Shown here one piece after another: positions 6,682 through 24,610 of a stretch of 29,528 bases of DNA (the stretch's first letter is position 1; each line of letters opens with the position of its first letter). A program made the translations under genes and the position numbers. The notes beneath the pieces are model-generated. The model did not search any database. It was not told the DNA's origin and was given only the letters and a program-made list of their open reading frames with translations. The stretch covers positions 1 through 29,528 of IMG/VR virus record IMGVR_UViG_3300048065_000881. One strand, written 5' to 3'. The DNA comes from a virus.

Positions 6682-7536
6682 TTAAACTTCCTCCAATACT
6701 ATTTCAATTCCTAGTTCACTAATTTGCGTTTCCTCTGCTTGCTCCATAACTACCTCCATGCCTAATTCGCTAATAAATCCTTCGTGTGCAATACTGTCTA
6801 AACTGTAATCAAGAAGCTTTTGCTGTTCTTCAGATGTCAACAATTTGTCAAACACATATACATCTCCCAATTCACCGTTCCATTCGGAAGTATGACCACC
6901 GACCCTAAATGGTGCAGTGCTATTAAATACTCCTGTTGTATGAGGATCTAATTGTTCAACTCCGATTTCTCGTCCTCTTATATCCCACATCCTAAACCCA
7001 ATTTGCACACCGTTTTCGTGCCAGCCAAATCCAAAATACCATTCGCCAGCAACAATAGGTTTGTCAGTGATAGCTGTGTTAGATTGCACAGAACCATCGT
7101 GAGACACAGCAAACTGTATGCCTGCACCTGAAGAACCGTTTCTGATGCCAAATGATCGAGAACCAGTAGACCCCCACACACCGATAGGAAATCTAAACTG
7201 AGTCAATTCATCCTGTTTAAACCAACATCCGATTGCAAAATCACCTGTAAAATTAAAAGGCTCTGGGTCAATATCTAGCTCGCCATCTTTAAAACTTCCC
7301 TTACTACCAAATCCGTTTCCGACATAGGTTGGTTTTTCTGAACTTACAGATTGTGACACAGACCTATTAAAAACAGAACGATCTTCCCATTCCGAGACAT
7401 CGTTAGAACCATCTTTAGTTACATAAATTTCTAAGCTATCGCCCCAGAAGACAGGGTTTAAAGCTGCAACCTCCTGAGCTTTTGTTAAAAAACGCCTGAT
7501 GAGGTTTTTAACTACACCTAGCCCAATACCAAGCAT
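6682..7536 (-). CDS. LamG-domain (laminin G-like) virion protein
   Basis: A 284-residue protein with a recognisable LamG/concanavalin-like domain at about 96-245. Landmarks are FAIGCWFKQDE, AGEWYFGFGWHENGVQIGF, PFRVGGHTSEWNGELGDVYVFDK, and the terminal LTSEEQQKLLDY helix typical of this fold. The N-terminus (MLGIGLGVVKNLI) may dock it to the virion. The C-terminus carries two copies of a short strand motif, ISELGMEVVME (255-265) and ISELGIEIVLE (272-282), a kind of tail repeat seen in phage structural proteins. A TAGGAG Shine-Dalgarno precedes the start. It probably binds host surface carbohydrate as part of the fibre complex. Confidence 0.8.
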   Translation of the reverse strand: MLGIGLGVVKNLIRRFLTKAQEVAALNPVFWGDSLEIYVTKDGSNDVSEWEDRSVFNRSVSQSVSSEKPTYVGNGFGSKGSFKDGELDIDPEPFNFTGDFAIGCWFKQDELTQFRFPIGVWGSTGSRSFGIRNGSSGAGIQFAVSHDGSVQSNTAITDKPIVAGEWYFGFGWHENGVQIGFRMWDIRGREIGVEQLDPHTTGVFNSTAPFRVGGHTSEWNGELGDVYVFDKLLTSEEQQKLLDYSLDSIAHEGFISELGMEVVMEQAEETQISELGIEIVLEEV

Positions 7537-11364: not shown

Positions 11365-12881
11365 TAAAATTTAATACCATAATATACTACTTTATTTACT
11401 GGTCGTGTTTCATTGTCTCCACTGTTAGTATAAACACTTTGTGCATTGTCTACGTTACTCGATCCTCCGGGGGCTGTTAAAACAACATTTGTAGATATCG
11501 TAGTTGTGTCTCCATTGCTGTCGTTAGGTAAATTAAAATTACCAGAGTTCGCACTAGCTGGAAAATAATACCCCGAAGCACTTTGCCCTATATTATCAAA
11601 TAACACCCAACCGCTGTCATCTCCTGAATGCAAATGATTATCTGCTGTGTGCGATTTAATTCCTTCGGCTTGAACAGAGTTAATGGTTCTCGTGCTTCCT
11701 GAGGGATCGACTGATCCTGTAGAGTCTAATCCACGGAGAAAATATCCTCGGTAATCAGGAAGGTTAAATGTAGTTGATCCGTCCCCCACGCCATAAGCTG
11801 TCCCTAGCTTAGTGTATAAATTAGCATAAGTAGTTCTGCTCACCGCTCTTCCGTCGCAGTGTAAATGACCCGCCGCTGCTTCTTCACTTGTAAAATTATA
11901 AGCAAAGGCTTTTACTGTCCCTGTAGTATCAACAGTGCCGAAAGTTGAGCTTCCTATTGCGTATAGTTTTGTTCCGTCAGAAACAAATTCTAATGTAGTA
12001 ATTTCATTTGCTCCTGTTCTTACCGTAGGGTTCCCTGAAATCATTGCTCCCCAGATAGGTTCCGCTCCGCCTACCGAATCTTGAATGTAGATAAGCGAAT
12101 ACTTACCCGGCTTGATGTTCGTTATATTGAACGTAGGACTGGTCGTAACCCCTGTAGCAACCGTTACTGTAGCAATGTGTCCTTGCGTTGAGTCCCAAGT
12201 CGTAGTGCTTAGCCAGTTAAGGGTCTGTTGTAAGAACAATGATTCTGCAAGGTCATTGTTTTGTTTAAGCAGTCCTGTTGTTGTGTCGTAAATGGCTAAA
12301 TTGCCGGCAACTTGTGGTTCAGGTCCAGTCATGCCCCCAATACTACTTGAGCTAATTGATGTCACTGAGGGCTCACCATTACTGTCAAAAGAAAGAATAT
12401 TGTTAGCTCTAGCCGCTTGGTCAGGAAGAACCGGGCTAATCGTATCAGGGTCACTTGCAGGGAACTGTAAAGAACGAACGTCTTGAGGAACGACACCTTC
12501 TGTTGCTTGTGCTAAAAGAAGAGTAAGCTTATCCAATGCGTTTTCTGTGTTTTCCGCAGGGAAGTTGTCCATTGCTATGTAATCAATCAACTGAGTAGCC
12601 GTCATTACTCTCTGACATGTTACTGTGACTGAAGACCCAGCAGCTGTTAGCTTAGCAATACCTACGGTCGTTAATGTAACATTAGACGCACTATTAGATG
12701 TTCCTATGTCACTGACCGTATAATCTGTTACATTAGTTAAAAGAAGTTCGTCTCCTGATGCTCCTACATATATAACTTGTAGGTCAGTAGCGACAAGCAC
12801 CACTGGTGTGTTTTGAAACTGAGTCACTCCCGGTGTGAAAGTGTAGTCTTTTATAGCTGTTGCTGATGCTCCTTGTATCAT
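11364..12881 (-). CDS. Tail fibre with T7-like N-terminus and collar (short-fibre) tip domain
   Basis: A 505-residue protein. Residues about 1-130 fit the beta-sandwich plus helix layout of T7-type fibre attachment domains, ending in YIAMDNFPAENTENALDKL. A linker and beta region follow. At about 318-390 lies a phage tail collar domain: GHLHCDGRAVSRTTYANLY, then GDGSTTFNLPDYRGYFLRG. This is the consensus seen in T4 gp12-like short fibres and many Stf proteins. After it comes a His-rich stretch (HTADNHLHSGDD, near 410-420) suited to metal coordination along the fibre axis. The C-terminus reads ETRPVNKVVYYGIKF, also typical of collar fibres. A TAGGAG Shine-Dalgarno precedes the start, which overlaps the gp16-like gene by four bases. 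Confidence 0.9.
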   Translation of the reverse strand: MIQGASATAIKDYTFTPGVTQFQNTPVVLVATDLQVIYVGASGDELLLTNVTDYTVSDIGTSNSASNVTLTTVGIAKLTAAGSSVTVTCQRVMTATQLIDYIAMDNFPAENTENALDKLTLLLAQATEGVVPQDVRSLQFPASDPDTISPVLPDQAARANNILSFDSNGEPSVTSISSSSIGGMTGPEPQVAGNLAIYDTTTGLLKQNNDLAESLFLQQTLNWLSTTTWDSTQGHIATVTVATGVTTSPTFNITNIKPGKYSLIYIQDSVGGAEPIWGAMISGNPTVRTGANEITTLEFVSDGTKLYAIGSSTFGTVDTTGTVKAFAYNFTSEEAAAGHLHCDGRAVSRTTYANLYTKLGTAYGVGDGSTTFNLPDYRGYFLRGLDSTGSVDPSGSTRTINSVQAEGIKSHTADNHLHSGDDSGWVLFDNIGQSASGYYFPASANSGNFNLPNDSNGDTTTISTNVVLTAPGGSSNVDNAQSVYTNSGDNETRPVNKVVYYGIKF

Positions 12882-15800
12882 AATAAGTCTCCTACTTCTG
12901 TAAATATCTCTTCGAAAAAATTACTTTGTGCAAGACCAATACTATATGTATCTCCCAATACGCCTGCAAATAAATTATCAATTCCTTGGTCAATGCCCGG
13001 AACACCCTTACCCGGAATAAAATCAGCTAACCCAGAAACAAAACGATATTTAGAAAAGTCTGCTCCTCTTATGCCATTAATCAATTCTATGGATGACTTG
13101 TCGGCTAGTCCAACGAAAGGTCCTAACTCACCAAGAACAGCTCTTAGTTTGTTCCCTTGTGCAAACTCCATAGGAGCGCCAACGATTGTTTGAATAAGAG
13201 GCATAGTGCCACTTGATTCTAAAATACGCTGTAATCTTTGTCCGCTCATTAACGTGTCTCTGGGGTCTTTAAGGTTAAGTGTATCTAAAATGACCTGCCT
13301 AAAGCCAGCGAGCATAATTGCCTGCGAAGCATATACCATCATATTTGTTGTAAGAGCCACAGATTGGGCTGACGTTGGGTTTACAATAAAATCAGTAACT
13401 TTATCATGACCAAAACCTTTAATATTTCTTTTTAAAGACTGCCTATAGTTTGCCAGCTCATATGCTCGGAACTTACCCAAGATACGAACAGCCGCTCCAG
13501 CAACCGTGCCCGCTTTTAATCCTAATTTACCGATAGCTACGGAAGCGTCATCTGGTTCTAAGACACCTGTTCTCATAGACTCATCAAAGAAATTAGATAG
13601 TTTGTTCCTAAGAACTTTGTCTTTAATATCAAAAGGAGCTAATCGAAAACCCGTTAATCCATTTTCTTTGGTAGTGTATTTAGCAGCCTCTTGTAATTCT
13701 TTAATATCAATGTCAAATCTTTTTAACGCTAAAAGAGCTTGTTGTGGAAGCTTTCCATTTATTGAAGCAGCATGAGCAAGCTCACCTACCCATTGTTGCA
13801 TAACATCATGGATTGCCTCTTGGTGCACTTGGGTATTGCGCATTAACTGATTATATTCAAAAAGCTTTCTGTGAGCGTTATCTAATAGAGTGTTCCCTGC
13901 TATTGCTTCTATCCCTTGGATACGAGACGCAGCAAACTGGCGCATGTCCGCCGCCGCTCCCATAACATGTAGAGCTTGTGCTGCTTTTTCTGGGACTTTG
14001 TATCTTTTTTGAGCTTCGATTACTTTAGCTCCAATTTCTTTAGTTGCTCGATCAACAGGCATTCCCATCCACATCATTTGATTTACCATTGTTGGTAAAT
14101 CATAAAAAGGAGAACTAAAGCCAGCCAGTTCAAGAGTAGCTAAGTCAGTAACCTTAGTGACGTTTTTAGTAATGTTTACTATCTGAGACGCTCCGGGCTT
14201 GTTTACAGGATGATCTAAATCTCCAATTATTTGGTCAAAGACTATTTTAGTAAGCCAGCGTTTTTTAAATTTTATGGGGCTTTTAATCATCTTTAGAAAA
14301 TTTACCTCATCTCCTATGATCTCCTTACGTATCTTTTCAATAGACGGGCCGAATGATTCTAAGATAACCTCATACTCTCCGGCTTTATGTATTTGATTAA
14401 GTATCTGTACACTCGGATTACCTGAACCATAAAGACGATCATAATGGTATTCACCAATGTCTTTAAATATAATCATTTTTCTAGCTGATAATTGCTTAGC
14501 TAGTTCTTTATCATAGTTTATTCCAATAATGTCTTCAGTAAAATCTTGCTCAATTAACTTATCATAAGTGTTTTCCAGATAACTGTTCATCTTACTTTGC
14601 GTTGAAACATCAACGAACCTGTTCATTTGTTTTGAATCAACAAGCTTCATTGTGTTGCGCACCCAATCATCTTTCCCAGCTTTGAGCATAAGCTCTCTGT
14701 TGTGGGTTGTGCCTAGTATTCTGTTACTTCTTAGATCAGTTATTGCACCGTGAGATTTTTTAATATTTCCGTCTAACTCATACAGTGTCTTAATTACATC
14801 CGCTATGTTCTTTGCTGAGGCATTTCCAGTAGGCACCCCGCTAAGCTCTTTGGCTACTTCTTCAGCAAAAGGATTCTCTCCTTTTTGAAAAAACTCATCG
14901 TACTTGCCTTCAGCGTTAAGGGCTTCTGTTAACAAGCTGCCTCGCTCTCCTGAGCGGACTTTTTTTATTGTTGAGACACTGTTGCCTATTCCTTCGTATT
15001 GCTTTCCACTCCAACCACCAACCATCCATTGATATAATCGCTCAAGGGAGCCTTTGCTCTTAACTTGTTTTAAAGCACGAGTTTCTGACTGTAGTGCAGC
15101 CAAATCTCTGCGATACATGGATTGAAATCTAGACAGTGCGTCTACTAATGTAATAGGCTTGCCGGGCTCATATATGTCCATCATAGCAGACAGTTGCTCA
15201 GTTGACCAATTGTTTTTTAATGCTTCATCCCGCAGTTCTTTTAATTTATTACGAAAATCTACGTCGCTAAGAAAAACACCTCCGGGGGCTAGTTCTTTTA
15301 GCAAGCTTAGGGCACCGCCAATGTAAGAATTTTGAATTTTTTCAAGGGCAGACGGATCAACAAGAGGAATTCTTTTCCCCTTTGTCATGTCTAAGATAGT
15401 TTCTGGCTTTTCTTGAATTTCATACACCTTTACTAAGTCTACCTCAAGTTCACTATAGTCCTCTAAAATATCTGCATCTGTTCTAGATTTAAGCTCAGCC
15501 AGTTCCTCTTGTGCTGCTTTACGCTTCTTTACATATGGCGTTTCTGTTTCTGTAGGTGCAAAGGAAGAGTCGTCATATTCCTTTTCGCCTTTCATTCCTT
15601 CTTCAAGTTCTCTAAGAGCTTTTTTAACTTGTGGCCCTTGAAAATCCTGCTCTATTTGTTCCTTAGTAATCTTAGGTGCTTTTGATTTATCTAAAGTAAA
15701 AGGTTGTCCAATGTTATCTTTCCGAAGAGACCCTAATCGTTTTTTTTCAGAGCCTAATCGCTTCCCCAATTTAATATGTAATTCTTTTAACTCAGGGAAG

Positions 15801-17473
15801 TCTTTTTTATTTTGTGTAAGAAAATCCCAAAATTTAATAAACGCCTGTCTAAGCTTGCCGTACTTTTTTTGGCCAAAAGCATTCCAGAAAACATCCGACT
15901 CAAAAGCTTCTCCAAAAACATCCGCTAATTCTTCTTCTGGTATGTTTGTTCGTTTAGTGGATTTTTTAATAAGATCCTCTAATTGACGAGCTAATTCTGG
16001 GTCAGATCGAGCTATCGTATGAAACAGCTCATGCCCTAATGCAAAAGTAGAGCTTCTTCCTTGTATGTCTTCTTCAAACAATCGACTGTTTAAGTAGATA
16101 ACTCCCGGCTCATCTCTATAAACACGACCGCGAGAATACTCTGCGTCCATAAGCTTTGAGTCCACTATAACAACCTCTCTGTTGAATAGCTTTTTCATAA
16201 ACTTTAATCTTTGAAGAGCAGGGTGGTCTGTAATTGCAGCGGCTCGGAAAGCTGAACTTCGCTGGTCACGAACCTTACGAACTTGCTGTTTTTCCGCAGG
16301 AGGCATATCAGCAGGGAGGTCGGACCCATCGCCATCTGTGTATCGTTTTATTCCTGCTGCGTAATTATCAGCATCCACAGTAGGTGCGTGGTTTTGGCTG
16401 GACATTTCATAAACGAGCTCGTTGTCTAGGTTTGTCCAATTCCCTTCTTTTATTCTAACTTCTGCTTCATCTCTTAACACAACTAAACGAGCAAACTCCT
16501 CCGCTGTCTGTGTTCCTTGTCTTAGCTTTTCAATAAGAACCTCTTTTTCACTTTTTGTGAGGCTTGGGTCCATCGCGATGCCTTGAAGCTTATTAAATTC
16601 TTTTTCGTTAAAATAAGCCACTGGGTCTCTTCCTGTAGCTTTTCGATAGCTTCCAGAAATAGTCCTCATGCCCACGCCAAAAGTTAAAGCGGTAGCCGCT
16701 CCCATTAACCAATCACGACCACTGCCTACTTCTTGACTTTGATACACATTCGATAATTCAATAGCTGATTGAGCCAATACAAAATCTCCCATGTCTTCAG
16801 TGAGGCGTAGGCTACTTCTTCCTATGTAGTGGTTAGCAAAACGACCAACTAAGCCAGATCCAACTTTCTTTGCTGCTAGATTCACACCTACGCGCACCCC
16901 AGCAGTCGCGATCCCGCCTGTAACAAAGTTTAATGGGTCAATGAGATTAAGGCCCAGCTCTTTCATACCAGCTTCAAATCGTTCAGCACCAAGCATACTA
17001 GACCCAATTCTTTCATATTCTTCATGAACCTTAGCGTATTCTGATAATCTACTGCGCCGATCCCAAATAAACGCAGCGGCTGGCATTGTAAGCTTTTTAT
17101 CTAATGCTTTAAAAAAATCACCTGTCTCTGGAAACTTTTCTGCTAATTGATCGGGAGTTAGCTTTTCTCTGTAAGGAATGGGCAAGTCTAACGCGTACCG
17201 ATACTCCCCCTCTAATAAAGGAGAAGAAAAGACTTCACTGTCATCTCCCATCCCGATAGCATCCGTAAACATTGCCATACCATCAAGGACGTTAGCTATA
17301 ACACTATCTGGGTTATTCAAAGCATACTGGTTTATGTTTCGAACACCAACTGTATTTATTAATCTGTTCTCCTGCCGCTCCCTCTGACGAAGCTCCTCTC
17401 TTTTTGTACGACCGAGAAATGAATCAGGATCATGAAAAACAGAAGTTAAGTTTCTTGGTGTTAGTAAACTCAT
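12878..17473 (-). CDS. Giant internal virion (ejection) protein, gp16-like position, with HExxH zinc-peptidase motif
   Basis: A 1531-residue protein, the third of three internal virion proteins and in the position of T7 gp16. N-terminal helices are followed by a Gly/Ala hydrophobic region (about 175-210). A metallopeptidase-like segment at about 435-530 starts with REVVIVDSKLMD and GVIYLNSRLFEED, then has HELFH at 481-485 (two His ligands and the catalytic Glu482). EEELADVFGEAF (513-524) follows and offers an acidic third ligand. Long charged helices fill the middle and C-terminal parts, with membrane-prone stretches near 1390-1410 (NMMVYASQAIMLAGF). I see no lytic transglycosylase motif. In T7 the equivalent is ejected and forms a channel through the envelope. 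Confidence 0.85.
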   Translation of the reverse strand: MSLLTPRNLTSVFHDPDSFLGRTKREELRQRERQENRLINTVGVRNINQYALNNPDSVIANVLDGMAMFTDAIGMGDDSEVFSSPLLEGEYRYALDLPIPYREKLTPDQLAEKFPETGDFFKALDKKLTMPAAAFIWDRRSRLSEYAKVHEEYERIGSSMLGAERFEAGMKELGLNLIDPLNFVTGGIATAGVRVGVNLAAKKVGSGLVGRFANHYIGRSSLRLTEDMGDFVLAQSAIELSNVYQSQEVGSGRDWLMGAATALTFGVGMRTISGSYRKATGRDPVAYFNEKEFNKLQGIAMDPSLTKSEKEVLIEKLRQGTQTAEEFARLVVLRDEAEVRIKEGNWTNLDNELVYEMSSQNHAPTVDADNYAAGIKRYTDGDGSDLPADMPPAEKQQVRKVRDQRSSAFRAAAITDHPALQRLKFMKKLFNREVVIVDSKLMDAEYSRGRVYRDEPGVIYLNSRLFEEDIQGRSSTFALGHELFHTIARSDPELARQLEDLIKKSTKRTNIPEEELADVFGEAFESDVFWNAFGQKKYGKLRQAFIKFWDFLTQNKKDFPELKELHIKLGKRLGSEKKRLGSLRKDNIGQPFTLDKSKAPKITKEQIEQDFQGPQVKKALRELEEGMKGEKEYDDSSFAPTETETPYVKKRKAAQEELAELKSRTDADILEDYSELEVDLVKVYEIQEKPETILDMTKGKRIPLVDPSALEKIQNSYIGGALSLLKELAPGGVFLSDVDFRNKLKELRDEALKNNWSTEQLSAMMDIYEPGKPITLVDALSRFQSMYRRDLAALQSETRALKQVKSKGSLERLYQWMVGGWSGKQYEGIGNSVSTIKKVRSGERGSLLTEALNAEGKYDEFFQKGENPFAEEVAKELSGVPTGNASAKNIADVIKTLYELDGNIKKSHGAITDLRSNRILGTTHNRELMLKAGKDDWVRNTMKLVDSKQMNRFVDVSTQSKMNSYLENTYDKLIEQDFTEDIIGINYDKELAKQLSARKMIIFKDIGEYHYDRLYGSGNPSVQILNQIHKAGEYEVILESFGPSIEKIRKEIIGDEVNFLKMIKSPIKFKKRWLTKIVFDQIIGDLDHPVNKPGASQIVNITKNVTKVTDLATLELAGFSSPFYDLPTMVNQMMWMGMPVDRATKEIGAKVIEAQKRYKVPEKAAQALHVMGAAADMRQFAASRIQGIEAIAGNTLLDNAHRKLFEYNQLMRNTQVHQEAIHDVMQQWVGELAHAASINGKLPQQALLALKRFDIDIKELQEAAKYTTKENGLTGFRLAPFDIKDKVLRNKLSNFFDESMRTGVLEPDDASVAIGKLGLKAGTVAGAAVRILGKFRAYELANYRQSLKRNIKGFGHDKVTDFIVNPTSAQSVALTTNMMVYASQAIMLAGFRQVILDTLNLKDPRDTLMSGQRLQRILESSGTMPLIQTIVGAPMEFAQGNKLRAVLGELGPFVGLADKSSIELINGIRGADFSKYRFVSGLADFIPGKGVPGIDQGIDNLFAGVLGDTYSIGLAQSNFFEEIFTEVGDLL

Positions 17474-20388
17474 TTGTAGGTTCTTTTAAGCTGCCAATTA
17501 TGCGATTTATTTGTGGTTATTCTCTTATCAAGAGAACCATAGTCGCTCATTAACTTCTCCATTGGTATATAAATCATATTCATAACTGTTGGGTAATCCT
17601 GAGAAATCGCTTCTGTGATTGCTTGCTTACTTGTCTTATCTCTCTTGTAAGCAAAAGGGGACACCCTTCCGTCGTAAACACCTTCGTTAAAGTTCTTATT
17701 GTGTGCCCCGATAATTTCCTTATCACTGGTCATAAAAGCAACTGCATTGCCCTCACGAACCATAGTCAAATTGATATTTTCACCGTCCTTGCCTTTGACA
17801 GTAGCCACAGGTCTTCCATACTTATCTACATTTGAAAAGACCAATCGAACCTCTCCCCCAGATTTACCTACTAAAGCCTTTAATGCCGCGGTTGCTTCGG
17901 GTCCTCCCTCTTGGCTTTTCTCAAAGGTATCTATATTTTTTAATCGAATACTTACAGAGTTATCCTCAATATTGACTTTCATTGTATCTCCATCATCAAC
18001 ACTAAGAACCTTTGTGCTTAGTCCTTGATAATAGCCTACGGGCTGTTGAGCCCCTGTTTCTGAAGGAAAGGTAACAATGATTCCGCTCCCATCTTTCGAG
18101 TTAGACACCTGAGTATTTGCCCATGACTGATTATCGAGAAACTGGTCGTCCCTAAGCCCAAGCTTGGGATTCTCCCTGAAATTTTTTCTTTTAATATTCG
18201 TTTCAAAGTACGCAACCGTATCAGAAACTTGTTTAACGCTCCAGTTATTTGGAATGTTCACAACTAAGCTAGATCGGCCTGTGGTTATTGGTTCCTTTCC
18301 ATTAAGCATGAGTCTTTGAGCCTCTTTTATGTAAGGCTTCATGTCATCCATAAATGAAGAATTGTCTGTTAAGTCCTTCAATTCTCGGTTGTCTATCGAC
18401 AGTCTACGACCATCTGCTTCGGCTAATCCTAAAGCAAGGCGGGATAAGAAAAGTTCAGCGTTTCTTGCATCCATAGCTCCGCCAAAAGGATCGTTTTGGA
18501 GGAAGGCCTCGCGCATGTTAGATGCCCGGGCATCAGTCAAGTGCTCAATAGCTACCATGTCCGCCATTAAAGACGCTTGAGTTCCTGCAACGAGCTTTGC
18601 GCCCATAGCTCCTTTAGCAGCAGTAAATAACTTAGAAAAGCTATTCTCGTCCCCCTCTGACGCATAACTAAACGCTGTTGATAAGAGCATCTTTTGCTCT
18701 GGTGTGTAAGCATCTCCAGCGTCCCTAAACATATCATTAAACATATCCGCAGAGAAGGCTGGTTCTGGAATTGGCAACCAGTCATGCTCTTTGTAATGCT
18801 CACCAATAGCACCTACCATCTTAAGTGATTCTTTATAGGCCGCCGGAGCATCCATTGTAGTAAATTTACTTAAAAGCGCTTTTGATTCTTGTTTAAGGCT
18901 TCTATTAAGTTTTAAATCATTTCCTCTAGAAAACTCTACGTTGTTGGCGGAAACACCTTTTTTCTGAGAGTCCACAGAAGAATTATTCTTAGTAGCATCT
19001 ACAGCAATGTCGTAAGCCGAAGTATTATTAAGATAATTTGTTATCGTCTTTTTTGCTTCTTGTAAGCCTGTAAGTTCAGCCTGCTCGTCAGGGAGTCTAA
19101 CTTTATCACTTAGTTCGTTAATCTTTTCTCCTAAATCACGCCACGTGCTCGACTTAAAGACTGCCTGCTTTGCGTCGTTTGTGTAAACAGTGTTGACCAC
19201 GCTAAAAAGTTTATCGTTAACTAAGTCAATAACTTGTTCAGCAGCGGTTACTCGCACGTTAAAAAGCTGTGCTTCTTCTGTTAATTCCCCCGCGTTTTCA
19301 AGTTGGGTAATTTGATCTCTGTGCTCACCAAGGATGCTGGCTGTATTCTGCAAAGAACCCGACGAATCCTCCATGGTTTTCACATACTGGTCTTCTTGAC
19401 CTTTGAAAAGCTTAACTAATTTGGCCGTTCGAGTTTCAACGAATTGATTGTAAAGGTTTGATGATTCAGTATCGGTTACTTGTTGAAAAAGAGTTTGAAT
19501 GTCTAAATCAACTTCCGTTGCTTTCTCGCCCCCAAGGTAAGACCACAAGGCAGCTAAATCTTTTCTCGTGGCAAGTGCCGCGTTAACTGAAAGTTCTCTA
19601 TATTTTGTTCTAAATGAATCTAAGTCTGTAATTTCGCCTCCAATGACAGATTCTTCCAGTTTAACCATCAACTCGCTTTTTTGTAAATTAATCGAGCTTT
19701 TCATTATGTTTGCGGATATCCCATACGCCGCCTCTATTACCTGCATTTTAAGCTCTTTCGACGCCCCTTTAGATTTTGCCAAAAGTCCTGCTGTTTTAAA
19801 AAGGTCAACAGCACTAGGCACGAAGCCCTCTTGTTCAGCCACTGTAAGGTGTCGCTGAAGCTCAGACCATTTCATGTTTAGCTGGGTTGTTTCAAGGACA
19901 GCCCCTTGCACGGCAACGTCTCTTTCTGCTAACGAAGCATGAATAGGTCCCATTTCTTTAACGTACCGATTAAAAGCGTCGGACATATCTTGACTGGTAG
20001 AGACAAGGTCACTACTACCATAATTATCTAAAATATCCTGCCTTCCCTTGGCAAAGTCAAAAGGAATTCCTTCTCTTATAAGAAGCTCCCCTTGTGCTTG
20101 CATTGTCTTTATTTGTGCATCTATTTGAGCAGATATAAGCCCCTTGTTGGCATTAATCGTATTCTCTTGTTTTCTCTTGTTATCCTCGTTATGGTTAACA
20201 GCAAAATTAAACAGGTCTTGTCCAAAATCAACCATTGTCTTACCCACGGCCGCTTGGCCTTGAGCGAGGATTTCATCTGTTCGATCTACGGACTCGGTTT
20301 GTAAACTACGAGCACGATCAAACTGACTAGACCCTCCTAATAAAGAACGGCCTTGCTGGCTTCCTAATAATACTGGTCTTTGTGGCAT
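17470..20388 (-). CDS. Internal virion (ejection) protein, gp15-like position, with C-terminal thermonuclease (SNase-like) domain
   Basis: A 972-residue protein lying between the gp14- and gp16-like genes. Residues about 1-770 are almost entirely helical and charged, as in T7-like core proteins. Residues about 788-930 form a staphylococcal-nuclease-like OB-fold: VLSVDDGDTMKV, then SIRLKNIDTFE, then NVDKYGRPVATV, then LTMVREGNAVAF. Set against SNase, the catalytic and calcium-binding residues appear as D801, R815, D820, T821, E823 and R859. The D/R/D/E spacing (14, 19 and 22 from the first Asp) is the same as D21/R35/D40/E43. The nuclease therefore looks intact. The start follows GGAGGAGG, and the end overlaps the gp16-like ATG. 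Confidence 0.9.
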   Translation of the reverse strand: MPQRPVLLGSQQGRSLLGGSSQFDRARSLQTESVDRTDEILAQGQAAVGKTMVDFGQDLFNFAVNHNEDNKRKQENTINANKGLISAQIDAQIKTMQAQGELLIREGIPFDFAKGRQDILDNYGSSDLVSTSQDMSDAFNRYVKEMGPIHASLAERDVAVQGAVLETTQLNMKWSELQRHLTVAEQEGFVPSAVDLFKTAGLLAKSKGASKELKMQVIEAAYGISANIMKSSINLQKSELMVKLEESVIGGEITDLDSFRTKYRELSVNAALATRKDLAALWSYLGGEKATEVDLDIQTLFQQVTDTESSNLYNQFVETRTAKLVKLFKGQEDQYVKTMEDSSGSLQNTASILGEHRDQITQLENAGELTEEAQLFNVRVTAAEQVIDLVNDKLFSVVNTVYTNDAKQAVFKSSTWRDLGEKINELSDKVRLPDEQAELTGLQEAKKTITNYLNNTSAYDIAVDATKNNSSVDSQKKGVSANNVEFSRGNDLKLNRSLKQESKALLSKFTTMDAPAAYKESLKMVGAIGEHYKEHDWLPIPEPAFSADMFNDMFRDAGDAYTPEQKMLLSTAFSYASEGDENSFSKLFTAAKGAMGAKLVAGTQASLMADMVAIEHLTDARASNMREAFLQNDPFGGAMDARNAELFLSRLALGLAEADGRRLSIDNRELKDLTDNSSFMDDMKPYIKEAQRLMLNGKEPITTGRSSLVVNIPNNWSVKQVSDTVAYFETNIKRKNFRENPKLGLRDDQFLDNQSWANTQVSNSKDGSGIIVTFPSETGAQQPVGYYQGLSTKVLSVDDGDTMKVNIEDNSVSIRLKNIDTFEKSQEGGPEATAALKALVGKSGGEVRLVFSNVDKYGRPVATVKGKDGENINLTMVREGNAVAFMTSDKEIIGAHNKNFNEGVYDGRVSPFAYKRDKTSKQAITEAISQDYPTVMNMIYIPMEKLMSDYGSLDKRITTNKSHNWQLKRTYK

Positions 20389-20391
20389 TGT

Positions 20392-21270
20392 TTAAGGTCC
20401 TCCTCCGGGTCCATAATATACAGGAGCGGGAGCAGGGGGAGCTCCTCCTCCAAACGCACTAAGTGGTGTAGGCTTAAAAGAATTATACGCTTGAAACCCT
20501 TGCATAGCCAAACTCCCAAAATTAGACAACGACTGAGCTCTATTAATGCTAGTCTGCACCTGAGAAGAACTGACCCCTGTTTTTTTAATAAGGTCTGCTT
20601 CTTTTTTAACTAACCCGGCTTGTTCTACGGCTGTTTTATAGTTTTGCTCTGATTCTCTAAATGAAACGGCTTGATTAAGACTGTTACGTTTTTTATTGTA
20701 TTCTGCTTGTAGTTTCATAACGCCACGCTGAGCAATGATCTCTGATTGTTTGTTCCATCCGTCGTATCGTAACTGGGCCTCTACTTTTGAAGATTGAATA
20801 CCTGAATCAATAAAAGCACTCTGTGTGCTTACAGAAAGAAGATCACCGCCCATTTTTGCAAGACGAACAGCCAACTCAGCGGTAGACCTTTTAGCTTGCT
20901 CCCTTGTTTCGGCAATTGCAGCAGACAATTCTGTGGACAGGCCTTTTCTAGTGTTTTCTAATTGTTGTAAATCATGTTCAAGTTGATAGTCGTCCCACAA
21001 TTGGTTTATTTGCATCATGCGAAGATTATAACCTGCTGTGGTTTTATCAAACTCCGCTCCGTCTAACATCATGTTTGCCTGACGATACTTAATTTTTGAC
21101 TGCCCTATTGCAGACGCTTTAATTGCAGCGGCTTGTCTTTTGCCCGCTTTGTCTGATTTAAACATACCAAACGCAGAGAGCGCCAGACTCCCTCCTGAAA
21201 GAAGAGTCATCGGCTCGATATATAGCCGAGGGCCTGTGATTAAATAAGTTAGTAGGGAGAATAGCTTCAT
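20392..21270 (-). CDS. Internal virion protein, gp14-like position
   Basis: A 292-residue protein. A hydrophobic N-terminal stretch (about 1-40, with GGSLALSAFGMF) leads into long, Gln/Ala/Lys-rich amphipathic helices (about 45-240). A Pro/Gly-rich tail (APPAPAPVYYGPGGGP) ends it. Size, composition and position between the nozzle gene and the larger ejection proteins match the smallest core protein of T7-like virions, which enters the outer membrane during DNA ejection. The annotated ATG overlaps the nozzle stop (ATGA). A second Met at residue 21 is possible, but it has no better ribosome-binding site. The role is inferred from synteny. Confidence 0.8.
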   Translation of the reverse strand: MKLFSLLTYLITGPRLYIEPMTLLSGGSLALSAFGMFKSDKAGKRQAAAIKASAIGQSKIKYRQANMMLDGAEFDKTTAGYNLRMMQINQLWDDYQLEHDLQQLENTRKGLSTELSAAIAETREQAKRSTAELAVRLAKMGGDLLSVSTQSAFIDSGIQSSKVEAQLRYDGWNKQSEIIAQRGVMKLQAEYNKKRNSLNQAVSFRESEQNYKTAVEQAGLVKKEADLIKKTGVSSSQVQTSINRAQSLSNFGSLAMQGFQAYNSFKPTPLSAFGGGAPPAPAPVYYGPGGGP

Positions 21271-23999
21271 CGTGATTGATTGATCTCTGGCATTAAAGAT
21301 ACCACGGTTAACGGATAGGGCAAGTCCTGAACAATATATAAATCAGACTTTCTGTCCCATCCTGAGCGAAACTCAACTCGTTTGTCGTCAGATTCTAAGT
21401 CTGGTCCTGTGTTCATAATTCGTCCTGTGTTTGAAAATTCTTCTAAATCAAGTTCATCTAAAGACACCCCATATTTAAATCCTAGAGAATTTCTTACTCT
21501 GACAGTTAGCGCGTGTGTTACTCTACGCTTGCCCTGATTTGTGCCTGCTATACCTTCAACATTAATCTCTAAAGGGCGTATAATCCCTTTGTATCGCCAC
21601 CCAACGTACACATAGTTGCTTGCTGCTTGCTGAAGAGTAAAACTATTACCCGTAATTGTTACATCAGGCTGAATCGCCCCATCAGCAACGACCGACACAG
21701 TTTTACCATTAAACCTCGACAAAGACGCGTCCGTAACAGTCGTCGTAGGAGTTCCGCCAAGAGCCACTTTGGTAGCAGAATCAAGATAAACCATAGACTC
21801 TTTGTCTTGTGGGTGTGAAGGTTTAAACGGGGAAGCCAAGCGTTCAATCGTTTTTTGATCTCCTCTTTGAACGAGCGCATAAAGCCAGTCCTCTTTTTTA
21901 TCAATTGATGGTAATGAAATAACAGATTCTACATAACCTATCTCCTCTATTGCATCTTCGCCTGTTAAAGCGGGTATGCCTGTGCTTTTGAACACGGTGT
22001 ATTTATCATTGGTGCTTGCACCATATAATGTAAAGTCTGTAGTGTTTCCCAGTATTCTGTAACACGCTCCGTTAGTCAATGACTCGCCTGTGCTTAACGT
22101 CCTTCCGCCTAACACATGTTGCGTCCAAGCGTAAACTTCTTGCTGTTTCTCGTATGTTAAACAAGCTAACTTTCCGTCTAGTCTAGCAATCCATAAAGTA
22201 GAGACAGGTTCTTGTTTGTAGCAAAAATCTACCGCTTCTGTGCCATCCTTTTCAAAAATATGGTCAGCTAAAATAGTGGTGTCCTGAGCCTCATATCCGT
22301 TTACTCGAATGTTAAACCCTACTTGATTAACTCGTTTACCTGATCGCTGAATATAAAGAAGGTCTGTTCCTACTAAGATAGGAGGTATGATAGTTCCTTT
22401 GGACTCCTCTGGAGTTACTCTGAAGTTTGTAGGCGTAATTGGATCGCCATCTGAAGGAGAGCGCCCTCTTTGTAACCCTGTTTCTGTTCCTATTAGCAAA
22501 TCATCTTTAGCAGTGATTGTTCTGACAATAGGTGTTCGATCTGCCTTAACTTTATAACTAATGCCAGAAGTAGCTAGAACTTGAGCATCTCCTGTCAATG
22601 GGGCAAAGTTATCTTGCTCCCCTGTTACACTTGAAAATATATGGTCCGGGTAAGCTGGACCTCCTGTTAGGAGCTGTCTTTGCTGATAACCCTCTCCAGA
22701 AAAAGGCTGGCTTGCTGAAGCACTTCCGTCTCCGCCTAAATAAGCACCTAAAAACCATGTTTCAGTGTTCCCGCTATTAGCGATGTTTTCACTGCCAGGC
22801 TCTCTTGGAGGGGCACTAGATGGAGTAACTTTTACAGAGGTAGCTGTGTTTCCAGAGTCATATGCTATTTTAACATTTAATGTTTGTGAGCCTAAAATAA
22901 GTAACACCCACCGTCCAACATCAGGAGATGAGGAAAGACTTGCATTAAACAAACTTGCACTGGCAGTAAGCTGAGCGGTGTTAATAGAGTCAGTTACCGT
23001 AAGCTGTCCTGTTAATGTAGTTGCTGAAACAGAGCTATCTAAAGAATAAAGCGGTTTGTAATTGTTAGCTATGCCAGTGTCGTGCGATATATAATATTGA
23101 GCACTAGCGAAAGCGGTTAACGACACTGTGTCAAAAAGAGTGGTTGTTCCTGTCGTTCCTTCATAGAAGTCTCCTTTTACCCAGCTCTTTTTTCCATCGT
23201 TAGCGTCGGTCATGCGATAATAGGCTTTTTCAAAAAGAGAAGAAAAACCTGCTATTCTAGAACCTAGTTTGCCTGCTGTCGGTGCATTACGCTGAGGAGC
23301 TAAATCAAAAACAGCGTCGCGGATTATATAGCTTACAGGTTCTACAATTAACTGCTGACCGCTAGAAACTGTGATTACTTCACCAAGATACCAGTCACCA
23401 CCAACTTGCCATTCAATAAAATCACCTATATTAACAGAGGCAAAGTCTGTAGATACGGAAGAATCAATCTGAACTCTGTAGATAAAATCAGACACCGACA
23501 ACTGAATGTCATTTCGATCAGTAGTGACATAAGGACCGTTTTTAAATTCTCTAATAGACCACGCCCATGTTGTGTCATCTGTCCGAACAAGTTTACGTGG
23601 GTAGTATCTAGGATGGTAGAAATATATTTCATTGCTTTCTGTCTCTACCGTTACGTCCCATATATCCGCCCCTGCCCATACATTAGAGGTTTGATTTAGC
23701 TTTAGGACGCCCTCTCTGTCGTAAATATTGCAAAAACCATCGCCCAATTCTACAATGTAAGCAGCGTCACTTGTAGGAACAAAATCAAAAAGCCTAGACG
23801 GACTGGTAATACTAGGGGCAGCCGAATCGCGAACATGATAAAATCCGCCACGAAAATCAGCGGGTCCTTTAGGGTCAATTAAAAAATTAGTTAATTCTTT
23901 GGCTCCATTTCGATACTGTGGGATATCTGTTCGGCCATAGCCTAACGGTGAAATCTCCCCAGCAGTGAAGTTAGTCTGGATTGGATCTACCTCTGGCAT
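21267..23999 (-). CDS. Tail nozzle protein (T7 gp12 / tail tubular protein B-like)
   Basis: A 910-residue beta-rich protein. Its N-terminus, TNFTAGEISPLGYGRTD followed by YRNGAKELTNFLIDPKGPADFRGG, is the hallmark opening of podovirus nozzle proteins. After it comes RLFDFVPTSDAAYIVELGDG with the DREG segment, and later repeated strand blocks of the propeller-like body. It would form the hexameric distal tube, below the adaptor, through which DNA leaves. It is longer than T7 gp12 (794 residues), so extra platform loops are likely. It overlaps the adaptor gene by one base and the gp14-like gene by three, so the three are coupled. Confidence 0.92.
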   Translation of the reverse strand: MPEVDPIQTNFTAGEISPLGYGRTDIPQYRNGAKELTNFLIDPKGPADFRGGFYHVRDSAAPSITSPSRLFDFVPTSDAAYIVELGDGFCNIYDREGVLKLNQTSNVWAGADIWDVTVETESNEIYFYHPRYYPRKLVRTDDTTWAWSIREFKNGPYVTTDRNDIQLSVSDFIYRVQIDSSVSTDFASVNIGDFIEWQVGGDWYLGEVITVSSGQQLIVEPVSYIIRDAVFDLAPQRNAPTAGKLGSRIAGFSSLFEKAYYRMTDANDGKKSWVKGDFYEGTTGTTTLFDTVSLTAFASAQYYISHDTGIANNYKPLYSLDSSVSATTLTGQLTVTDSINTAQLTASASLFNASLSSSPDVGRWVLLILGSQTLNVKIAYDSGNTATSVKVTPSSAPPREPGSENIANSGNTETWFLGAYLGGDGSASASQPFSGEGYQQRQLLTGGPAYPDHIFSSVTGEQDNFAPLTGDAQVLATSGISYKVKADRTPIVRTITAKDDLLIGTETGLQRGRSPSDGDPITPTNFRVTPEESKGTIIPPILVGTDLLYIQRSGKRVNQVGFNIRVNGYEAQDTTILADHIFEKDGTEAVDFCYKQEPVSTLWIARLDGKLACLTYEKQQEVYAWTQHVLGGRTLSTGESLTNGACYRILGNTTDFTLYGASTNDKYTVFKSTGIPALTGEDAIEEIGYVESVISLPSIDKKEDWLYALVQRGDQKTIERLASPFKPSHPQDKESMVYLDSATKVALGGTPTTTVTDASLSRFNGKTVSVVADGAIQPDVTITGNSFTLQQAASNYVYVGWRYKGIIRPLEINVEGIAGTNQGKRRVTHALTVRVRNSLGFKYGVSLDELDLEEFSNTGRIMNTGPDLESDDKRVEFRSGWDRKSDLYIVQDLPYPLTVVSLMPEINQSR

Positions 24000-24610
24000 T
24001 ATGCTAAGTTTGGATATCTAGTCGGTTGAAGTCCCGCTTCATGAGAATTAGTCCACTCATTAGCAGCAATCGTCTTTTGGTAATCTTCCTTAGAGTCAAT
24101 GCTTCGGGCTTCTGCAAATTTTATTCGGAACTCGTTTTCTATTCGGTCATATAATGACCCATCCCCTGAACGGGAAAAAGCTAGTTCTTTTGCTAGTTGT
24201 AGTGATATGATTTCGTTTAAGGAATCATCTAAAAGGTCTACATTTTCTTCGTCTTTTATGTATTTAATATACAAAATAGACTCGTCAGATAATATATTTT
24301 GACCTTCTAATTCCCAGTCATTAATTGCGGTGCCATCTCGTTGGTCAACTACTAACCAAAGACGCAAACAATCAGAAGGGAGTGGAAATTGATAGCCCCA
24401 TTGAAACTCAGGCTTATCCGCTAACGGAGCTAGTGTAGCACGTTTACGTAATCGTTTCCAAGGGTGCGATCTTAAAACCTTACGCCGTGAAATGTCGTAT
24501 CGGTTTTTTAATAAATCTGCTGTAGGTGTTCCGTCATCTAAAGACGAGATTAACCTATCACCAAGTCGGATCAGGGCATCATTGCATATGTCTAAACTTG
24601 TTCCGGGCAT
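23999..24610 (-). CDS. Head-tail adaptor (T7 gp11 / tail tubular protein A-like)
   Basis: A 203-residue protein with the gp11 family pattern. It has a short helix LDICNDALIRLGD, a loop, then NRYDISRRKVLRSHPWKRLRKRATLAPL (about 36-63) and FQWGYQFPLPSDCLRLWLV (about 69-87), and a C-terminal helical half. It should form the dodecameric ring joining portal and nozzle. The ATG begins only four bases after the T-tract of a strong terminator, and no Shine-Dalgarno is visible, so its expression depends on readthrough from the capsid cassette. The start is supported by the family-typical N-terminus. Confidence 0.93.
   Translation of the reverse strand: MPGTSLDICNDALIRLGDRLISSLDDGTPTADLLKNRYDISRRKVLRSHPWKRLRKRATLAPLADKPEFQWGYQFPLPSDCLRLWLVVDQRDGTAINDWELEGQNILSDESILYIKYIKDEENVDLLDDSLNEIISLQLAKELAFSRSGDGSLYDRIENEFRIKFAEARSIDSKEDYQKTIAANEWTNSHEAGLQPTRYPNLA

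What the first reader, a model, noticed from the sequence alone, without database searches (positions are those of the whole stretch)
17470..18030. Ejection protein fused to an apparently active thermonuclease domain
The gp15-like internal virion protein ends in an SNase-like OB-fold. The catalytic set (D801, R815, D820, E823, R859) is complete, and the first four keep the spacing of the classical enzyme exactly. T7 gp15 has no nuclease. If this protein is injected with the DNA, the phage would deliver a nuclease into the envelope or cytoplasm at the first moment of infection. Possible uses are degrading host DNA or RNA, clearing extracellular DNA, or competing with other phages. Self-DNA protection would then be a puzzle; confinement to the periplasm or dependence on calcium could explain it.
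Basis: partly seen in the sequence, partly recalled or inferred. Interest (0 to 1): 0.75.

Follow-up and report, generated by a model that had tools for sequence, protein, structure and literature searches.

The report
Phage ejection protein carrying a nuclease
An uncultured short-tailed phage appears to carry a complete DNA/RNA-cutting enzyme of the staphylococcal-nuclease type, fused to the end of a protein that such phages normally store in the virion and push into the cell ahead of their DNA; this suggests the phage delivers a nuclease at the start of infection, although no activity or packaging has been shown.

Summary
Observation confirmed. The 972-aa ORF at 17470-20388(-) ends in a genuine SNase domain: Pfam PF00565 E=1.3e-9; PDB thermonucleases E=9.5e-9; AlphaFold core pLDDT 90-98 over residues ~787-886; Foldseek 1.5-1.6 A over 99 columns to staphylococcal nuclease. 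D801, R815, D820, E823 and R859 are all present as stated. Deviations: F822 replaces a near-invariant proline, and the classical C-terminal helix/'GLW' end is replaced by an unrelated ~85-residue tail. The carrier is assigned as 'gp15' by position only: it lies between gp14-like and gp16-like genes that have counterparts in a sister phage (tail protein 64% identical), whose slot protein has no SNase and no detectable similarity. The ejection module diverges fast (gp12 98% but gp14 57% in another relative). Nearly all phage SNases found are free-standing; one further C-terminal SNase fusion to a giant late protein was found in an unrelated podovirus-like contig. I found no paper on a natural SNase-armed ejection protein; staphylococcal nuclease packaged artificially in T4 heads is active with calcium. 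Most likely a Ca2+-dependent nuclease cargo delivered into the cell envelope. Packaging, delivery, activity and target are inferred.

The parts
17470..20388 (-). 972-aa ORF, gp15-position (ejection/internal virion) protein with C-terminal SNase
   Evidence: ATG..stop, overlaps next gene by ATGA; gene order as in relatives
18031..20388 (-). N-terminal part, residues 1-786; no detectable homologue; mostly helical in a low-confidence model
   Evidence: no hit in phages, IMG/VR, GTDB genomes or PDB; pLDDT 38
17731..18030 (-). SNase OB-fold core, residues ~787-886
   Evidence: PF00565 E=1.3e-9; pLDDT 90-98; Foldseek to staphylococcal nuclease
17986..17988 (-). D801 (SNase D21, metal ligand)
   Evidence: invariant in 33 viral SNases
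17944..17946 (-). R815 (SNase R35)
   Evidence: invariant
17929..17931 (-). D820 (SNase D40, metal ligand)
   Evidence: nearly invariant
17920..17922 (-). E823 (SNase E43, general base)
   Evidence: invariant
17812..17814 (-). R859 (SNase R87)
   Evidence: invariant
17473..17730 (-). C-terminal tail, residues 887-972, replaces SNase helix 3/GLW end
   Evidence: low pLDDT; no counterpart in other SNases
20392..21270 (-). gp14-position protein (292 aa)
   Evidence: 29% identical to the gene in the same place in G003, E=4e-15
12878..17473 (-). gp16-position protein (1531 aa), phrog_684 virion structural protein
   Evidence: phrog_684 E=1.9e-31; 28% to G003 gp16-slot protein, E=4e-63
21267..23999 (-). 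tail tubular B / gp12-like (910 aa), synteny anchor
   Evidence: phrog_376 tail protein E=1.5e-121
23999..24610 (-). tail tubular A / gp11-like (203 aa), synteny anchor
   Evidence: phrog_394 tail protein E=9.6e-44

Best explanation
The gene encodes the middle (gp15-position) ejection protein of a short-tailed phage, to whose C-terminus a complete staphylococcal-nuclease domain has been attached. The protein would be packaged in the head core, threaded through the tail at infection, and (if it behaves like T7 gp15) built into the tunnel across the periplasm, with the nuclease near the inner-membrane end. There, in a calcium-containing compartment, it would cut nucleic acid non-specifically; the most plausible uses are destroying DNA of later-arriving phages in the envelope or host nucleic acid near the entry site, while calcium-poor cytoplasm or an inactive packaged conformation spares the phage's own DNA. 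Shown: the domain, its fold, its residues, the gene's place. Inferred: packaging, ejection, activity, compartment and target.
For: SNase identity by profile, sequence and model; all five catalytic residues, the same ones conserved across 33 viral SNases. Same slot between gp14-like and gp16-like genes in G003, with gp12 64% and portal 70% identical; same arrangement in MW202510 and HTVC203P, where neighbours are annotated as internal virion proteins. The SNase region reads as ordinary coding sequence of this phage: codon fit 0.119 per codon versus 0.09 for the N-terminal part, antisense frames -0.30 to 0.014. The 972-aa protein has no cysteine, compatible with unfolding and refolding through the tail. 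T7 gp15 associates with the cell after adsorption and forms a hexameric periplasmic tunnel whose C-terminal region is stabilised by gp16-N (PMC8954989). Staphylococcal nuclease targeted into T4 heads is packaged in active virus and cuts packaged DNA when calcium is added (PMC3012670). An independent SNase C-terminal fusion to a giant late protein exists in G009, whose only relative found in the phage collection lacks the nuclease.
Against: No sequence or profile similarity of residues 1-786 to T7 gp15 or to any gp15-slot protein, so the ejection role is positional. No close homologue of the whole protein was found anywhere, so conservation of the fusion cannot be tested. F822 sits where proline is nearly invariant, and the classical third helix/W end is missing, which could weaken folding or activity. 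The high-confidence model was built with SNase sequences in its alignment. In the T4 experiment calcium led to digestion of the phage's own DNA, so an active packaged nuclease is costly unless controlled.
Confidence: 0.55

Rival explanations
1. The domain is a folded but catalytically weak or silent DNA/RNA-binding OB-fold used structurally, e.g. to hold packaged DNA or the genome end in the core or tunnel.
For: T7 gp15 has DNA-binding activity (PMC8954989); the P42 equivalent is F822 and the C-terminal helix is missing; a silent domain would remove the self-damage problem.
Against: All five catalytic residues kept, whereas degenerate SNase domains usually lose them (general knowledge of Tudor-SN repeats); relatives do without the domain.
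Confidence: 0.2
2. The nuclease acts inside the producing cell (host DNA breakdown late in infection, or DNA processing), and the fusion is only a way to express it; the SNase part is removed or inactive in virions.
For: Free-standing SNase genes are common in phages; the gp16-position protein carries an HExxH motif that might process the cassette, as proposed for metallopeptidase domains of polyvalent proteins (PMC5512222).
Against: Position in the structural module; a free enzyme would be simpler; cytoplasmic calcium is low (general knowledge).
Confidence: 0.12
3. A toxin-like cargo: the virion delivers a nuclease effector into the cytoplasm, as proposed for MuF-family polymorphic toxins, for killing or competition.
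For: An enzymatic domain at the C-terminus of a putative virion protein is the MuF pattern; more than half of 191 putative MuF toxins have nuclease domains, and head loading with delivery alongside DNA is hypothesised (PMC5576092).
Against: No MuF domain found; no recognised immunity gene; gp15 of T7 forms the periplasmic tunnel rather than entering the cytoplasm; no lysogeny gene was identified in this window.
Confidence: 0.08
4. The ORF is not an ejection protein but another late, perhaps non-virion, protein.
For: No homology to known gp15.
Against: Same gene order and similar sizes in relatives; neighbours on both sides have homologues in G003.
Confidence: 0.05

Closest known systems
Staphylococcal nuclease / PF00565 (TNase-like) family
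   Same: OB-fold order and all five catalytic residues; 1.5-1.6 A over 99 columns
   Different: fused to the C-terminus of a ~790-aa late phage protein; lacks the classical C-terminal helix; the proline before the catalytic glutamate is phenylalanine
T7 gp15 and P22 gp20-type ejection proteins
   Same: gene position between gp14- and gp16-like genes; size within the 431-982 aa range given in PMC8954989
   Different: no sequence similarity; T7 gp15 (747 aa) has no nuclease
Free-standing phage SNases (phrog_452; SPbeta YokF; cyanophage endonucleases)
   Same: same catalytic domain
   Different: those are separate genes of roughly 110-520 aa, not part of a large structural-module protein
MuF polymorphic toxins of temperate phages
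   Same: enzymatic domain at the C-terminus of a putatively head-packaged protein, often a nuclease
   Different: no MuF domain, no immunity gene identified; SNase is not mentioned in that paper's main text
Polyvalent proteins (PMC5512222)
   Same: large late proteins thought to be packaged and injected with effector domains
   Different: SNase is not mentioned in that paper's main text; this protein has one recognisable domain only
Artificial staphylococcal nuclease packaged in T4 heads (PMC3012670)
   Same: SNase inside a phage head
   Different: engineered through the capsid targeting sequence; here the fusion is natural

Membership tests
SNase (PF00565) | profile score above curated cut-off | tested here: met
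   38.9 bits vs 21
SNase (PF00565) | catalytic residues D21, R35, D40, E43, R87 | tested here: met
   D801, R815, D820, E823, R859
SNase (PF00565) | five-stranded OB-fold with helices 1 and 2 placed as in SNase | tested here: met
SNase (PF00565) | third helix and conserved C-terminal W (common, but I do not treat it as defining) | tested here: not met
   profile matched only to 80/107; low pLDDT after residue ~887; short free-standing phage SNases such as CNPH82 cn57 also end early
SNase (PF00565) | Ca2+-dependent nuclease activity | not testable with these tools
   needs assay
T7 gp15-type ejection protein | gene between gp14-like and gp16-like genes in the tail/core module | tested here: met
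T7 gp15-type ejection protein | sequence or profile similarity to gp15 proteins (not decisive: PMC8954989 says most are matched by size and synteny) | tested here: not met
   hhalign probability 0.3% against three gp15-slot proteins; no PDB match
T7 gp15-type ejection protein | curved helical protomer forming a tunnel | tested here: inconclusive
   single-sequence model mostly helical but pLDDT 38
T7 gp15-type ejection protein | packaged and ejected | not testable with these tools
   needs virion proteomics and an ejection assay
MuF polymorphic toxin | MuF domain | tested here: not met
   no Pfam or PHROG MuF hit
Polyvalent protein | two or more effector domains in one transferred protein | tested here: not met
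   only SNase recognised in P0001

The most novel reading that the evidence does not exclude
A natural nuclease-armed DNA-ejection tunnel: the C-terminal SNase of a gp15-type protein is displayed at the inner-membrane end of the ejectosome, switched on by periplasmic calcium, and degrades superinfecting DNA or host nucleic acid during entry, with the virion form held inactive until the tunnel assembles.
Probability: 0.3. Interest if true: 0.85.

Novelty: new variant of a known kind. Interest (0 to 1): 0.58.

Why it matters
Ejection proteins are known to carry a cell-wall enzyme or an RNA polymerase, but I found no report of a natural nuclease cargo of the SNase type. If active, it would show that the tunnel a phage builds across the envelope can itself be armed, would offer a new route to superinfection exclusion or early takeover of the host, and would pose a sharp, testable question: how a phage stores an enzyme that can cut its own packaged genome.

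Tried and rejected
Whole-protein homologue searches in phage records, IMG/VR and GTDB genomes found nothing, also with the C-terminal 216 aa in IMG/VR. Profile comparison with three gp15-slot proteins failed. Full-length AlphaFold from a single sequence was uninformative. The C-terminus of HTVC203P's slot protein looked lysozyme-like to me by eye, but no PDB or Pfam match supports it, so it is not used. Arthrobacter Abba and Streptomyces Issmi nucleases near structural genes turned out to be free-standing, as did the Moraxella Mcat8 and Microcystis Mae-JY22 hits. Chance match, and artefact of an antisense frame, rejected on E-values and codon fit. Papers searched for ejection or virion proteins with SNase: none found; most subscription papers are not in that library. 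From memory I suspected that BFVD entry A7KUR9 belongs to Bacillus phage 0305phi8-36, but no record under the two accessions I tried was held, so this is only a lead.

Full report
What is there. The minus-strand ORF 17470-20388 encodes 972 residues. Pfam finds one domain, SNase PF00565, residues 814-888, E=1.3e-9, 38.9 bits against a cut-off of 21; PHROGs finds phrog_452 endonuclease at 791-891, E=9.4e-13; the best PDB relatives are staphylococcal thermonuclease variants, E=9.5e-9. The first four keep the classical spacing; the interval E43-R87 is 36 instead of 44 residues.

Fold. An alignment of the C-terminal 206 residues with 32 SNases from IMG/VR contigs (A4) gave an AlphaFold model with pLDDT 90-98 over about residues 787-886 and the order b1-b2-b3-a1-b4-b5-a2. 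Foldseek places it on staphylococcal nuclease at 1.5-1.6 A over 99 columns. The alignment contained SNases, so model and family assignment are not fully independent, but sequence searches had already established the family. In A4 the equivalents of D801, R815, E823 and R859 are invariant and that of D820 nearly so, and the window has all of them. It departs at the proline before the catalytic glutamate (F822), and after residue ~887 it has no counterpart of helix 3 and the W of other SNases; instead there is an ~85-residue tail of low confidence. Some short free-standing phage SNases also stop early. Inference: activity is likely but not certain.

The carrier protein. Residues 1-786 match no Pfam or PHROG family; the whole protein has no homologue in 50,697 phage records, IMG/VR or GTDB genomes, and residues 1-780 have only insignificant PDB matches. 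The case that it is the gp15-type ejection protein is positional. The window reads, in transcription order, portal (phrog_332), a protein related to phrog_3742/458, capsid, a 158-aa ORF, gp11-like and gp12-like tail proteins, then ORFs of 292, 972 and 1531 aa. In the sister contig G003 (37,461 bases; portal 70%, capsid 71%, gp12 64% identical) the same order holds with ORFs of 264, 912 and 1651 aa; the flanking 264- and 1651-aa proteins are homologous to the window's (E=4e-15 and 4e-63), while the middle one is not detectably so. MW202510 and pelagiphage HTVC203P show a comparable series with annotated internal virion proteins. A review states that gp15-like proteins are mostly matched by size and synteny because sequences diverge so fast, and gives a size range of 431-982 aa (PMC8954989).

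The nuclease is an addition. G003, MW202510, HTVC010P and HTVC203P have no SNase anywhere in their records at E<=1. The ejection module as a whole changes fast: the contig behind L005 has gp12 98% identical to the window but gp14 only 57%. Codon fit of the SNase part (0.119) resembles that of the rest of the ORF (0.09), and antisense frames fit poorly, so it is a settled part of the gene.

How unusual. In INPHARED, phage SNases are numerous (416 records for one query), and the ones whose annotation was listed or inspected were separate nuclease or hypothetical genes. In IMG/VR, of 80 SNase ORFs retrieved, 79 are of 113-523 aa and one is of at least 1820 aa. That one, in contig G009, is a 2132-aa late protein ending in SNase, in a record with phrog_156 portal, scaffold, major head protein and amidase; its only relative in the phage collection is a 1312-aa protein of podovirus MW202803 that ends about 100 residues after the match, too short to hold the SNase, and that record is not among the listed SNase hits. 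So the same kind of fusion seems to have arisen at least twice. A Foldseek search of predicted viral structures also lists SNase-like domains inside several large proteins, one named a baseplate hub protein; most have no name at hand and I could not examine them, so further virion-linked SNases may exist. SNase domains are also very common on plasmids, up to 46% identical to this one.

Mechanism. In T7, gp15 leaves the head at infection and forms a hexameric tunnel through the periplasm; its C-terminal region is stabilised by gp16-N (PMC8954989). If this protein behaves likewise, several nuclease copies would end up on the inner-membrane side of the tunnel. Staphylococcal nuclease needs Ca2+, which is scarce in bacterial cytoplasm and available outside it (general knowledge), so the enzyme could be silent during assembly and active in the envelope; some SNases use Mg2+ (PMC3585158, title), which would make control harder. 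Precedent for storage: staphylococcal nuclease directed into T4 heads is carried by active virus, and cuts packaged DNA into short fragments, predominantly a 160-bp repeat, when calcium is added (PMC3012670). That same result shows the danger to the phage's own DNA in calcium-containing water, so I expect an additional control, possibly the pre-ejection conformation or the altered C-terminal end; this is speculation. Degradation of superinfecting DNA in the periplasm has a cellular analogue in endonuclease I acting on excluded T4 DNA (general knowledge, not tested here).

Verdict. Observation confirmed; interpretation partly supported. My estimates: domain real about 0.97, carrier in the ejection slot about 0.85, catalytically competent about 0.75, delivered and acting in the envelope about 0.45-0.5. 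Novelty: new variant of a known kind, an ejection-position protein with a new enzymatic cargo.

Noticed in passing
window 16019-16033 (-), within ORF 12878-17473: The gp16-position protein has an HELFH (HExxH) motif at residue 481, and G003's counterpart has HEFWH in a comparable region: a zincin-type metallopeptidase-like motif as described for polyvalent phage proteins (PMC5512222). Pfam and PDB searches do not confirm a domain.
   Followed up: partly
L005 7241-7849 versus window 20392-21270: A contig with tail, capsid and portal proteins 97-100% identical to the window has a gp14-like protein only 57% identical, suggesting replacement or very fast change starting at the ejection module.
   Followed up: partly
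L015 4569-5045 and L011 14542-15006: An acetyltransferase-like gene sits between the gp12- and gp14-like genes in a relative (my reading of the sequence) and in pelagiphage HTVC203P (annotated), but not in the window.
   Followed up: no
L105 3832-10227 (contig IMGVR_UViG_3300018412_000052): 2132-aa late protein with a C-terminal SNase in a different podovirus-like phage; apparently an independent fusion.
   Followed up: partly
BFVD entries A0A6J5M9K0, A7KUR9, A0A516LXN0, A0A646QXC0, A0A7R7G2A4, A0A8S5RKI5: SNase-like fold matches inside large predicted viral proteins, one named baseplate hub protein; possible further virion-linked SNases.
   Followed up: no
window 6682-7536 (-): 284-aa late protein with a Laminin_G_3 / concanavalin A-like lectin domain, E=3.6e-10.
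   Followed up: no
plasmids collection: Relatives of this SNase domain (up to 46% identity) are found on 4,636 plasmid records, 3,830 of them predicted conjugative.
   Followed up: no
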